A stretch of 46,897 nucleotides of DNA from an uncultured Lachnospiraceae bacterium (GTDB lineage Bacteria > Bacillota > Clostridia > Lachnospirales > Lachnospiraceae), in the NCBI GenBank assembly GCA_947626395.1, contig CANQRU010000029.1, positions 1 through 46,897 on the forward strand, written 5' to 3'. The notes under the pieces are model-generated. The model was not told the origin of the DNA and did not search any database. It saw only the letters and a program-made list of their open reading frames with translations. The translations under genes were made by a program, and so were the position numbers. Below are positions 20,574 to 25,094 of the stretch, in pieces. How positions within the stretch are numbered: position 1 is the stretch's first letter; each line of letters begins with the position of its first letter.

Positions 20574-22910
20574 TTATTTTATATCGTCATCCTCTCCATC
20601 TTCAAAGGACGCTCCGTCGTCGGACCTCTCCGATATGACCGCAAACGTGATTATGGCCGCCGCGATCCCCACGAATACGAACAGCCAGAACCACCACGGA
20701 ATTCTTTCGAAAAAGAGCTGTCCGGCCGGACCGGCCGTCTCTCCGTCTTCCGCTCCCGCCGATCCGCTCACGGTCTCTTCCGGCAGTTTCCCGGAAGCGT
20801 ATTCCTCAGAGGATTCTTCCTCTGCCGGAAATGTCACAATGACCGGGACATCCGAAGTCTCCTGCTGATCGTCCGTCCCGGAGGGCGTTTGCTCTTCTTC
20901 CGAACCAGCCCCTGTGCTGCTGCCGGACTGCGGCTTCGACGCGGCTGCGGTTCCGCTCCCGGCGCCGCCCCAGAACTGGCTTCCGGATGTACTTCCGGAA
21001 CCGGTGCCCTTCTGTGGCTGCGTGCCGGCAGGAACTCCCGTACCTGCGCCGGCCCCGGCGTTTCCGCTGTTTTGCGCCGCGGTCATTCTTTCTGCGGATC
21101 CTGTCTGCGCGCTGCCTCCGGGCTGCTCTCCCGGCACGACGGCAGGCGTGGCTGCTGCGCCCGTATTCGCGCCCGGCTGAGTCACCGCGCCGCCTCCGGG
21201 AGCGGATCCCGCGGCACTACCTCCGCCCGATCCTGCCGCCCCGGCTCCACCGGAAGTCACACTTCCATAAGCAGCGGATATAACCTGATAGCCGCACGTT
21301 TCACACTGCTCATACCGCCAGCCGTCGGCAGAGATCCAGCTGACATAAGCGTGAGAACCATACCACCCTTTTGTGCCGCAGTCATAGCATTCTCTCCAGT
21401 GACCGGAGCGGTCATACTTCCAGTCGCCATAGCTGTGCGCATGCCCCGAGTAAGATGTCTGTCTGCGTTCATACTGCGCTTCCACACGCACGGGAGAAGC
21501 CGGCATTCGAAACTGATTGCCTGAAATCTTCAGATTCGCAGGAGTACATTTCCATCCGGCAAAAACCTGACCGGAGGATGCAGGCTTTTCAGATACAAGC
21601 CTGATCTGCGCGCCTTCTCGGACATATCCGTCGTCAATCTCCCCGGACGCTTCCCCATTCTTCACGGTAAGCCGGTAGCGGATATCCGTTCCTGATATCT
21701 GCCCTGTACCGGCGAGCGTACCGTCCACGCGCAGCTTTCCTTTGACAGAAAGAACCGCGCCCGCTTCCACTGTAAGAACGGAACTTTCCGGGACTGTCAG
21801 CACCGTGCCCTGCGGAATTTCTGCACTATACGGCAGCTTGACCGCGCTGCCCCAGACGCGGCCTTCCTTCCCGAGCAGGATCACGCCCGACCAGGACGAC
21901 TGGCCGGCCGTATCCGCCAGAGAACCGGCCGCAATGTATGCGTTCCCGGGTTTTCCGGAAGCATCCGCCGTCGAAAGCCGCCCTCCGATACCGTAAGCGG
22001 AATTCTGACCGCTCCCCGCGGCTGACATACTGCCTCCTGCGGCTGTCACCCTCCCGCCGCTGACGGTAATAATATGCGAGCAGGCAGAATCGCCGATTCC
22101 GACGCCCATTACCCCTCCGGACGCTTCCACGATCCCGCCGCGTATCACGATATTCTCTGCGCTTCCCATACTTCCCGCGCCGATACCTGCTCCGTGGGTT
22201 ATACTGGATGCGCGGATATTCCCTCCGCTGATCGTAATATTCTTCGTCTCATGCGCCTTCGAGTCCTCCGAGGCGCTGCTTCCGATCCCCGCGCCCCAGT
22301 ATCCTGTCGCGGTAAGCGAACCGCAGCCGGCCGCGCAGACATGTCCCGCGGTTCCGGCTTTCTGACAGCGGAGCGTAAGAGTTCCCACGGTTCCGCTTCC
22401 GTCTTTCTGCAGACCGGCGCGCCACATTCCGCTTTTTAACACATTCGCGCTTCCGTCCGCCAGCGTAACCGTTACATTCCCGGCGCTGCCCGCCGCGACC
22501 TCAAACGCGGGCACATGGCTGCCGTCCGGAATCTGAATACTGACTCCTTTAAGCGTAATATCCGCGTTCACACCTTTCTCCACCAAAATACGGTCGACCG
22601 TTGTCGTACCGGATATCGTAAGCGGCGTACCGGTCAGAATATGCAGCACATGATCTGCATACCGGTAATCCGTACCGATCGTTCCTCCCGTGACGGTAAA
22701 ATCTCCTGTCTCCCGACCGGCTTCCCCGGGAGTGGCCGGATCGATCTCCGCTGCAGCGCGGTTCAACGTCATATTCTGCGCGGCAATATTTCGGATCTCC
22801 GCTCCGGCAAAAACGTCTTTGCACGCTTCCCCTGCAAATACCGTACACGGCCAGGATAATACCGCAAGGCAGCCGGCCAGCATAACGCATATGATTTTCC
22901 TGCTCAACAT
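20574..22910 (-). CDS. large membrane-anchored surface protein with beta-helix-like repeats
   Basis: 778 aa from ATG 22908-22910 (AAAGGGAGGACCG upstream), which begins directly at a signal peptide (MLSRKIICVMLAGCLAVLSW, cleavage near VFAG). Residues about 80-340 are Gly/Thr-rich with repeated G-G-x-I/V units, suggestive of a right-handed beta-helix. About 415-500 resembles a bacterial InlB B-type repeat (GEIDDGYVREG, then FAGWKCTP). About 500-560 carries two H-x-W-x-x-C-x-x-C-G type motifs (GHWRECYDCG and WRYEQCETCG), possibly metal-binding. A Gly/Ser/Ala/Thr-rich stalk of about 150 residues leads to one transmembrane helix (IPWWFWLFVFVGIAAAIITF) and an acidic tail. No LPxTG motif. Role in adhesion or carbohydrate binding is conjecture. 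Confidence 0.75.
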   Translation of the reverse strand: MLSRKIICVMLAGCLAVLSWPCTVFAGEACKDVFAGAEIRNIAAQNMTLNRAAAEIDPATPGEAGRETGDFTVTGGTIGTDYRYADHVLHILTGTPLTISGTTTVDRILVEKGVNADITLKGVSIQIPDGSHVPAFEVAAGSAGNVTVTLADGSANVLKSGMWRAGLQKDGSGTVGTLTLRCQKAGTAGHVCAAGCGSLTATGYWGAGIGSSASEDSKAHETKNITISGGNIRASSITHGAGIGAGSMGSAENIVIRGGIVEASGGVMGVGIGDSACSHIITVSGGRVTAAGGSMSAAGSGQNSAYGIGGRLSTADASGKPGNAYIAAGSLADTAGQSSWSGVILLGKEGRVWGSAVKLPYSAEIPQGTVLTVPESSVLTVEAGAVLSVKGKLRVDGTLAGTGQISGTDIRYRLTVKNGEASGEIDDGYVREGAQIRLVSEKPASSGQVFAGWKCTPANLKISGNQFRMPASPVRVEAQYERRQTSYSGHAHSYGDWKYDRSGHWRECYDCGTKGWYGSHAYVSWISADGWRYEQCETCGYQVISAAYGSVTSGGAGAAGSGGGSAAGSAPGGGAVTQPGANTGAAATPAVVPGEQPGGSAQTGSAERMTAAQNSGNAGAGAGTGVPAGTQPQKGTGSGSTSGSQFWGGAGSGTAAASKPQSGSSTGAGSEEEQTPSGTDDQQETSDVPVIVTFPAEEESSEEYASGKLPEETVSGSAGAEDGETAGPAGQLFFERIPWWFWLFVFVGIAAAIITFAVISERSDDGASFEDGEDDDIK

Positions 22911-23054
22911 AACGGTCCTCCCTTTCGATGCGGCAGCCCGCACGATTTCATTTCCAGTCATTTCCTTCTGCCTTATCTTATCATATTTGTGAAATGAAAT
23001 CTCTATCCATACTATTATGATTCGCTTACGATTTTCTATCATATCCGTTTCTTA

Positions 23055-24347: not shown

Positions 24348-24423
24348 AGGGGATGTCGTTTGGCTTCTGGGTGTTGCAGGAAAGGAGTTCAAAAGACGAA
24401 TTGCACATAGTCGCATAAGATAC

Positions 24424-24644
24424 GCGCAGGAAGCCTGCTCCTCCTGAGGTTCAGGTTTGCTCGCGGGAAAAGTCTAAGTTCACAGCGATTTGCTAAAGGC
24501 GGCACGAAAAATGGGACCAGCGTGTGTGCATCCGTAAGATGAGTTCCCTGGTCCTCCCATTTTTCGTACCAACGCAAATCTCTGTTCACTAAGCCTTTTC
24601 AGCCGCTCACAAAATTCACCTCAGGAGGAGCAGGCTTCCTGCGC
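24424..24644. repeat. long nested inverted-repeat element 1 (221 bp)
   Basis: The ends are a perfect 27-bp inverted repeat (24424-24450 with 24618-24644). Inside, the two halves continue to pair imperfectly: GAAAAG (24467-24472) against the CTTTTC side near 24600, GATTTGC against GCAAATC, and a perfect 12-bp inner stem (24505-24516 with 24555-24566) extended by CCAG/CTGG. No open frame or transposase is present. It lies between convergent genes citC and the YetA-like gene. It could be a miniature inverted-repeat element or encode a long hairpin RNA. Confidence 0.85.
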
Positions 24645-24758
24645 TGGTTCTTCCGGGAGCAAGGGAACGCCAGCACATACTGTATAGCGCTGCATAACTG
24701 TCTATCGCGCTGCATAAAGTGCAGAAACTTCTCTCTGCCTCACATATGCGTCAACACA

Positions 24759-25013
24759 GCGGGACAGGCGGGGCCGTGGCACATCCTGGACGCGATTTAC
24801 GGAGAAGGGTTAGTCTTTCTTAATGAAAAAACGTCAGTTTGAGGGCCGACGCCCATGACCTCAAGTCATGGGCGGAGCGGCAACCTGAGCGAGAATTTCT
24901 TCAGAAATTCTCGCGAATTTGCCGTTGCCCTCAAACTGGCGTTTTTGAATTTAGAAAGACTTCCCTTCGGAGTCATGAGCGTACAGGATGTGCCACGGCC
25001 CCGCCTGTCCCGC
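24759..25013. repeat. long nested inverted-repeat element 2 (255 bp)
   Basis: The ends are a perfect 30-bp inverted repeat (24759-24788 with 24984-25013). A middle stem pairs 24835-24846 with 24927-24938 (12 bp perfect) and, imperfectly, the flanking 20 nt on each side. The centre holds two separate hairpins: 24851-24859 with 24865-24873 (9 bp), and 24889-24899 with 24904-24914 (11 bp, 4-nt loop). The fold is a long stem with a forked head. There is no open frame of note. It is 114 nt from element 1 and just before the end of the YetA-like gene. Confidence 0.88.
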
Positions 25014-25094
25014 GTACCTCCCGCAACCATGTGCGCAAAACCTCTCAAATCAAACAACTCTTTCGCAAAACGACAGACACTCGCACACCATCAC

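What the first reader, a model, noticed from the sequence alone, without database searches (positions are those of the whole stretch)
24424..25013. Two neighbouring giant nested inverted-repeat elements
Between convergent genes lie a 221-bp element with a perfect 27-bp terminal inverted repeat and, 114 nt on, a 255-bp element with a perfect 30-bp terminal inverted repeat. Both pair along most of their length, and the second ends in a forked head of two perfect hairpins. The perfect ends with looser interiors suggest selection on or recent mobility of the ends. They carry no transposase. They could be non-autonomous mobile elements, or templates for long folded RNAs.
Basis: seen in the sequence. 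Interest (0 to 1): 0.72.

Follow-up and report, generated by a model that had tools for sequence, protein, structure and literature searches.

The report
Paired giant DNA-hairpin mobile elements
The two huge hairpins are the two ends of one small mobile DNA element with many copies in related gut bacteria; its arms appear to stay matched as DNA rather than as a folded RNA, and what moves it is unknown.

Summary
In detail: 24424-24644 and 24759-25013 are giant quasi-palindromes with perfect 27- and 30-bp ends, absent from shuffles. They form one unit, 24403-25034: outer flank, hairpin L, interior, hairpin R, inverted outer flank. The module core occurs in 9 of 26 genomes of the genus and, in a family-wide sample, in 12 other genera, where 52 of 56 stem pairs show changes on both sides while several loops are kept. 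Neighbouring core-type modules face each other in 20 of 20 cases. In one genome a 682-bp unit occurs twice at 99% identity with unrelated flanks, so the unit moves. No transposase is carried; Y1/RAYT genes do not track it. Across genera stem mismatches are nearly strand-symmetric (G-U 47, A-C 39 cells), unlike RNase P of the same genus (205, 1), which favours DNA hairpins over a folded RNA; a genus-level alignment is less clear (61, 25). Best reading: a non-autonomous element with branched DNA-hairpin ends, moved in trans by an unidentified enzyme, arms kept matched by fold-back copying or selection on DNA folding. It works like a giant REPIN but fails REPIN-specific tests. No Rfam match; eight paper searches listed no description.

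The parts
24403..24423 (+). left outer flank (TIR-like; consensus GCACATrGTCGCGGrAGrTAC)
   Evidence: consensus of 73 hairpins; the last bases next to the hairpin are strong (T 64, A 69, C 71 of 73), the outermost six weaker (34-50 of 73); pattern with up to 3 mismatches found 57 times in 5 genomes, reversed control 0, though not every match lies at a hairpin
24424..24644 (+). module L, A-type giant hairpin, read outer to inner on +; perfect 27-bp terminal stem
   Evidence: identical copy at G000:C38:20434-20654
24645..24659 (+). inner flank of module L (family consensus TGTGTTTTCGCGGG, here TGGTTCTTCCGGGAG)
24645..24758 (.). interior between the modules; no fold (z +0.56), no ORF of 80 aa or more listed inside
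24745..24758 (-). inner flank of module R, ending ..AACACA against the hairpin
24759..25013 (-). module R, B-type giant hairpin, read outer to inner on -; perfect 30-bp terminal stem, forked head
   Evidence: R1 match G000:C29:24812-24962 minus strand, 170.9 bits
24789..24811 (.). 5' side of the conserved internal-loop region of module R (CGCGATTT..GGAGAAGGGTT)
   Evidence: mostly invariant in 43 aligned copies
24962..24983 (.). 3' side of the same region (CCCTTCGGAGTCATGAGCG)
   Evidence: mostly invariant in 43 aligned copies
24850..24874 (.). head hairpin 1 (CCCATGAC..GTCATGGG), stem covaries
24889..24914 (.). head hairpin 2 (GCGAGAATTTCT/AGAAATTCTCGC), stem covaries, flanked by the conserved CTCAG / CAAATTCG junction
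25014..25034 (-). right outer flank (inverted, GTACCTCCCGCAACCATGTGC)

Best explanation
24403-25034 is one copy of a family of small non-autonomous mobile DNA elements of Lachnospiraceae. The element has two ends. Each end is a ~200-300-bp branched quasi-palindrome (module) with an asymmetric outer flank (..rTAC|) and inner flank (|TGTGTTTT..). The two modules face each other across a usually short interior. Shown here: dispersal, unit structure, movement of a whole unit in one genome, extreme pairwise covariation with conserved loops, and near strand symmetry of the pairing across genera. Inferred: an enzyme supplied in trans recognises the modules as DNA hairpins (single-stranded or cruciform) and copies the unit to new intergenic sites. 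Also inferred: the two arms of each hairpin stay complementary because one arm is recopied from the other by fold-back (template-switch or hairpin-primed) synthesis, and/or because only well-folded DNA hairpins are mobile. The conserved loops would be the protein's recognition points.
For: 16 sense core matches in the own genome and 86 in 9 of 26 genomes of the genus (at least 90 bits). R1 core in 14 of 299 family genomes from 13 of 298 genera, 12 of the genomes outside the genus. 20 of 20 neighbouring core-type pairs face each other; some are orthologous, so not all independent. G021:C8 and C7 share a 682-bp unit at 99% identity with unrelated flanks. The gidB-parA junction is free of the element (107, 94, 105 nt) in G025, G008 and G023, and carries it or remnants in G000, G004, G002, G012, G021, G009 and G018. 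52 of 56 pairs have changes on both sides across genera, 603 such cells against 167.6 in shuffles and at most 138 when slid. G-T/A-C cells: 34/35 (B), 10/15 (A), 8/24 (B') and 47/39 across genera, against 205/1 for RNase P. At the window's locus module R is 97-98% identical to the G004 and G012 orthologues (module L 90-95%), while third codon positions are 79-82% and outside intergenic DNA 58-85% identical.
Against: No mobilising enzyme was found, and no direct repeats flank the units: longest shared word 5.25 against 4.94 +/- 0.42 permuted, 16 composites. Many copies are orthologous and old, so recent activity rests mainly on G021. At the C38 locus the modules (94-99%) are hardly more conserved than the neighbouring DNA (87-96% in most stretches), so the contrast at the window's locus is not general. 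In the genus-level core alignment G-U exceeds A-C (61 against 25); the antisense strand refolded gives 42 against 22; on the 43-copy R alignment all pairs give 140 against 72, or 90 against 70 where the window has a Watson-Crick pair. The inner-to-outer strand folds better in 71 of 73 and 22 of 28 modules. So an RNA role is not excluded. At matched low divergence the two-sided/one-sided ratio is not clearly different from RNase P (0.84/0.80/0.91 against 0.31/0.48/1.08; at 0.2-0.4 it is 3.62 against 0.65, but with only 4 RNase P pairs). The duplicated unit in G021 shares only about 12 nt outside the left and 2 nt outside the right hairpin, so the outer flank may not be fully part of the moving unit.
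Confidence: 0.6

Rival explanations
1. A large structured non-coding RNA (or pair of RNAs), dispersed by duplication and conserved because the RNA works.
For: Many compensatory changes and invariant loops. Module R is more conserved than third codon positions at the window's locus. A consistent strand is more stable (71 of 73 and 22 of 28). G-U exceeds A-C in the genus core alignment (61 against 25).
Against: Cross-genus G-U 2.8% against A-C 2.4%, where RNase P of the same genus shows 11.9% against 0.1%. Groups A, B and B' show G-T no higher than A-C in the outer-to-inner reading. The same core lies in both orientations within one unit (20 of 20), so one transcript cannot carry both in sense. 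No Rfam match.
Confidence: 0.17
2. Exapted bidirectional transcription terminators or mRNA 3'-end protectors: each module ends the gene that reads into it.
For: Of 37 R modules examined, 22 have the nearest called ORF pointing at them, 14 of these with the outer flank at most 12 nt from the stop codon. The inner flank TGTGTTTT follows the hairpin like a weak U-tract in this genus. In the window both flanking genes read into a module.
Against: The U-rich inner flank is not kept in several other genera. Of 50 loci with an ORF called on both sides, 30 are tandem, 13 convergent and 7 divergent. For L modules 18 nearest ORFs point at the module and 18 away. Termination does not need 250 bp with invariant loops. 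ORFs were called mechanically, orthologous loci count more than once, and 10 of the 15 'away' calls for R are ORFs that run into the module.
Confidence: 0.12
3. Ordinary MITE or REPIN-like element mobilised by a known transposase (IS200/RAYT Y1 or a DDE enzyme), with the palindromes a by-product of replication template switching.
For: Non-autonomous, extragenic, inverted doublets of palindromes with compensatory changes, as reported for REPINs (PMC3116915, passages). Template switching can create and perfect stems (PMC8794818, abstract and start of the introduction).
Against: Y1_Tnp is in 3 of 9 element-bearing genomes (one of them only a fragment) and 7 of 17 others, and 0 of 6 inspected Y1 loci (of 28 places) have giant hairpins. 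No target duplication. Conserved internal loops would erode if the palindromes were only a by-product. DDE transposases were not searched for.
Confidence: 0.2

Closest known systems
REPIN / REP doublets with RAYT (IS200/IS605-like Y1 transposases)
   Same: Two palindromic units in inverted orientation around a spacer; extragenic, non-autonomous, compensatory changes common (PMC3116915, passages).
   Different: Units of 200-300 bp with branched heads instead of short REPs; no RAYT correlation; flank word rTAC instead of the GTAG/GGAG word (recalled); stems diverge almost completely between genera.
MITEs and stem-loop families (ERIC, NEMIS, Pae-1, Efa-1)
   Same: Small, dispersed, non-coding; ERIC is predicted to fold into one long stem-loop, and Pae-1 and Efa-1 into a pair of adjacent stem-loops (PMC2267715, passages).
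   Different: No parent transposon or target duplication found; two separate nested palindromes; found across a bacterial family with mainly loops conserved.
Adeno-associated virus inverted terminal repeats (recalled, not tested)
   Same: T/Y-shaped hairpin with two small cross-arms at each end of a unit, ends inverted to each other; hairpin-primed copying would keep arms complementary.
   Different: Chromosomal and bacterial; no Rep gene known; no flip/flop seen; no linear intermediate shown.
Integron attC sites (recalled)
   Same: Folded single-stranded DNA recognised through unpaired bases rather than sequence.
   Different: Not seen in cassette arrays; no integrase searched for; modules come in facing pairs.
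Rfam structured RNAs
   Same: Strong covariation.
   Different: No match at gathering score; best sub-threshold matches are miRNA precursor families from E 0.17; stems nearly strand-symmetric across genera.

Membership tests
REPIN/RAYT | two palindromic units in inverted orientation | tested here: met
   20 of 20 neighbouring core-type module pairs convergent
REPIN/RAYT | a RAYT / Y1 transposase in the genomes that carry the repeats | tested here: not met
   PF01797 in 3 of 9 carriers and 7 of 17 non-carriers; no giant hairpins in 6 inspected Y1 loci of 28 places
REPIN/RAYT | short REP unit with GTAG/GGAG-type 5' word (recalled) | tested here: not met
   modules 202-299 bp, flank word rTAC in this genus
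MITE | small non-coding unit with terminal inverted repeats, many copies | tested here: met
MITE | target-site duplication | tested here: not met
   no excess of flanking direct repeats in 16 composites
MITE | related autonomous transposon | tested here: inconclusive
structured non-coding RNA | G-U tolerated far more than A-C on the transcribed strand | tested here: not met
   47 against 39 across genera, 52 against 74 in groups A+B+B'; control RNase P 205 against 1; genus core alone 61 against 25, antisense refold 42 against 22
structured non-coding RNA | known Rfam family | tested here: not met
structured non-coding RNA | transcript | not testable with these tools
   no RNA-seq
parvovirus-like hairpin ends | branched terminal hairpins at both ends, inverted | tested here: met
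   the A-type module L is less clearly branched
parvovirus-like hairpin ends | HUH Rep and nicking site | tested here: inconclusive
   only Rep_1 (PF01446) was searched; 0 of 26, but no control genome rang either
parvovirus-like hairpin ends | flip/flop inversion of the hairpin | tested here: not met
   no inverted core relative to the flanks among the 65 grouped hairpins of this genus

The most novel reading that the evidence does not exclude
A new class of bacterial mobile element whose two ends are branched DNA hairpins that are regenerated at each cycle by fold-back copying. This would be a chromosomal counterpart of parvovirus inverted terminal repeats, recognised by shape and loop bases rather than by stem sequence. 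Stems would then be free to drift completely between genera while arms stay matched, and the unit could occasionally carry genes (G000:C8).
Probability: 0.25. Interest if true: 0.85.

Novelty: new variant of a known kind. Interest (0 to 1): 0.66.

Why it matters
A family of this size and structure in Lachnospiraceae, a major group of gut bacteria, has no Rfam match and turned up in none of my paper listings. It suggests that extreme covariation, usually taken as proof of a functional RNA, can be nearly strand-symmetric and so arise at the DNA level; the G-U against A-C count with an RNase P control is a simple, general test. If the ends are mobile DNA hairpins recognised by shape, an unknown enzyme remains to be found.

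Tried and rejected
Two independent neighbouring elements: rejected, because copies occur and in G021 move as a pair with common outer flanks. G002 shows the window's locus with module L and most of the interior deleted, one way in which single hairpins arise.

Chance inverted repeats: rejected. Y1/RAYT: rejected as a correlated gene. Rep_1: 0 of 26, uninformative because no control genome rang. Phages, plasmids, viral contigs: no match to the unit or to two exact patterns. Rfam: nothing at threshold.

A precise empty site below citC: not obtained. In G001, G023, G019, G008 and G025 other sequence follows citC; G021's contig ends soon after it. gidB-parA gave presence/absence, but the intergenic DNA is too diverged to read the junction base by base. 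G021:C8 against G018, compared by eye, shows the right outer flank absent from the G018 gene end. Target duplications: none.

Two-sided/one-sided change ratio as an RNA test: weaker than it looked, since at matched low divergence it is not clearly different from RNase P; the G-U/A-C counts carry the argument. Gene-neighbour statistics use mechanical ORFs and count orthologous loci more than once. The 73 hairpins were required to begin with GCG, and their orientation was set by the flanks themselves, so neither point is an independent finding. Conservation above the neighbourhood is clear at the window's locus but not at C38.

Papers: eight searches, of which only the top rows were listed (for instance 12 of 111, 12 of 24, 10 of 45). 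Seen: PMC8794818 outline with abstract and start of introduction; passages of PMC3116915 and PMC2267715; the rest as listings only. None of the listed papers described such elements in Lachnospiraceae, as far as title and abstract start show.

Full report
WHAT IS THERE. The two hairpins are real and exactly placed. The module at 24424-24644 has a perfect 27-bp terminal stem; the one at 24759-25013 has a perfect 30-bp terminal stem and a forked head. Nothing else like them occurs in the 46.9-kb window, apart from a call nested in the second, and nothing in 20 mononucleotide shuffles. The DNA between them does not fold. They lie between the convergent genes for citrate lyase ligase and a GH127-like protein.

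THEY ARE ONE ELEMENT. The own genome holds many copies of each. At G000:C38 both occur again in the same order 112 nt apart, the first 100% and the second 96% identical. Outside each hairpin lies a ~21-bp flank, consensus GCACATrGTCGCGGrAGrTAC, strongest next to the hairpin; inside lies TGTGTTTTCGCGGG (73 unique hairpins; they were selected to begin with GCG and oriented by these flanks). The outer flank pattern with up to 3 mismatches was found 57 times in 5 genomes (G000 17, G004 15, G012 15, G001 3, G002 7) and its reversed control never; not every match lies at a hairpin. So the unit is: outer flank, module L, interior, module R, inverted outer flank. Module L is either A-type, as here, or B'-type, which shares the R core but has other end stems. 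From I transcribed 86 sense-strand matches of at least 90 bits to the R-type core. Among them 20 neighbouring pairs lie within 3 kb, and 20 of 20 face each other; some pairs are orthologous, so they are not all independent. Interiors of the 16 composites with two intact modules measure 50-312 nt, with one of 2355 nt.

IT MOVES. Nine of 26 genomes of the genus carry the core. In G021 a 682-bp unit covering both modules and the interior occurs at C8 and C7 with 99% identity and unrelated surroundings, with further copies at 93% and 90%. The gidB query matched in 19 of 26 genomes. At the gidB-parA junction the element is absent from G025, G008 and G023 (107, 94 and 105 nt between the genes) and not detectable in G013 (250 nt). 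It is present in G000, G004 (whose contig ends before parA), G002, G012 and G021, partial in G009 and decayed in G018. The other eight were not assessed: in seven no parA was found in the fetched stretch, and the 1.26-kb gap of G003 was not examined. For G021:C8 the G018 gene end lacks the outer flank, by eye. At the citC site G004 and G012 carry the whole unit, and G002 has lost module L and most of the interior. I found no target duplication in 16 composites. No match in phages, plasmids or viral contigs.

IT IS OLD AND FAMILY-WIDE. A covariance model of the core matched 14 of 299 family genomes, 12 of them in other genera, with up to nine matches in one genome outside the genus (stricter filters and few candidates scored per genome, so these are lower bounds, and E-values are rough). 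A second model built mainly on those matched 5 of 392 genomes of the order: four in the same family, among them one further genus, and one outside it at only 30 bits and E 3.2e-4, which I treat as chance. In the other genera 52 of 56 stem pairs show changes on both sides in some copy. What tends to stay is CTAA opposite TAAG, ATTC..CTCAG around head hairpin 2, and the CTGATG/CTGAAG loop (34 of 42 rows shown; 8 antisense rows dropped). Facing pairs recur there: of 24 fetched loci, L240, L245, L249 and L259 have two core matches, 4 of 4 facing, and L247 and L253 have a second hairpin of another type.

DNA OR RNA. Across genera there are 603 cells with changes on both sides against 167.6 in shuffles and at most 138 when the partner is slid (that alignment was fitted to the model). 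Usually this is read as a functional RNA. But an RNA tolerates G-U on its own strand and hardly tolerates A-C. RNase P of the same genus, treated in the same way, has 205 G-U and 1 A-C cells (16 of 21 matched places; 5 partial ones dropped). The modules have 47 and 39 across genera, and 34/35, 10/15 and 8/24 in groups B, A and B' (65 of 73 hairpins, 8 left out as unassigned). Predicted folds hold on average only 1.9-3.9 G-U among 95-111 pairs on either strand. Against this reading: the genus-level core alignment has 61 G-U and 25 A-C cells, and the antisense strand refolded has 42 and 22. The 43-copy R alignment, read inner to outer, has 140 G-T and 72 A-C over all pairs, or 90 and 70 where the window has a Watson-Crick pair. 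The inner-to-outer strand folds better in 71 of 73 and 22 of 28 modules. None of these approaches the RNase P ratio. I conclude that pairing is kept mainly at the DNA level, with an RNA role not excluded. Because the same core sits in both orientations within a unit, one transcript could not present both in sense.

HOW IT PROBABLY WORKS. Template switching in DNA replication can create and maintain perfect stems (PMC8794818, abstract and start of introduction). This, or hairpin-primed copying during transposition, would give strand-symmetric covariation. Loops that do not pair and hardly change are best explained as binding points of a protein acting in trans. At the window's locus module R is 97-98% and module L 90-95% identical to the orthologues in G004 and G012, with third codon positions at 79-82% and outside intergenic DNA at 58-85%. 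At the C38 locus the modules (94-99%) differ little from most neighbouring DNA (87-96%; one stretch 76%), so the excess conservation is not shown everywhere. No enzyme is identified: Y1 transposases occur in 3 of 9 carriers and 7 of 17 non-carriers.

COMPARISON. It works like a REPIN (inverted doublet of palindromes, non-autonomous, extragenic; PMC3116915 passages) but lacks the RAYT correlation, the short unit and the flank word, so I do not file it there. The branched ends recall AAV terminal repeats and attC sites (both recalled); no Rep, integrase or flip/flop was shown.

VERDICT. A real family of paired giant DNA-hairpin elements in Lachnospiraceae, without a match in Rfam or in my paper listings. 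Unit structure is shown, mobility is shown in one genome and supported by presence/absence elsewhere, DNA-level pairing is supported with the reservations above, and the mobilising enzyme and cycle are unknown.

Noticed in passing
L131:2147-5041 (G000:C8): A copy with a 2355-nt interior holding three ORFs (tRNA_bind domain, EamA-like transporter, one without Pfam match) between gidB and parA; an EamA-like ORF is also seen, by eye, next to the R module in G004 (L147), and G009 has other DNA there that may code for an acetyltransferase (my reading, not searched).
   Followed up: partly
L065, L030, L060, L062 (G021), outer side of module R: Tandem repeats of 11 or 13 bp directly at the hairpin base, e.g. 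GTAACTGTCTCGC repeated in L065, which include the last bases of the hairpin; possibly traces of end processing or slippage.
   Followed up: partly
L016 and L022, inside the head of module R: A ~45-nt insertion with a small inverted repeat of its own, by eye; a similar insertion interrupts the G009 copy at gidB-parA (L150).
   Followed up: no
L152, L154, L155, L160 (gidB-parA junction): The junctions without a detected element hold a parS-like TGTTTCACGTGAAACA; decayed A-like repeats in G021 (L151) hold GTTTCACGTG variants.
   Followed up: no
L111 interior (G012:C72): The interior of the orthologous element has about five tandem copies of a ~20-bp CTGCATAACTGTATATCG unit, by eye, against about two in the window.
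   Followed up: no
window 20574-23042 (-): An 822-aa Gly/Ser-rich ORF, perhaps surface-exposed, without any Pfam match at E 0.001.
   Followed up: no
G000:C29 and G000:C38: Module A is 100% identical at two loci of G000, although the C29 orthologues in G004 and G012 are 89-95% identical to it; suggests gene conversion between copies.
   Followed up: no
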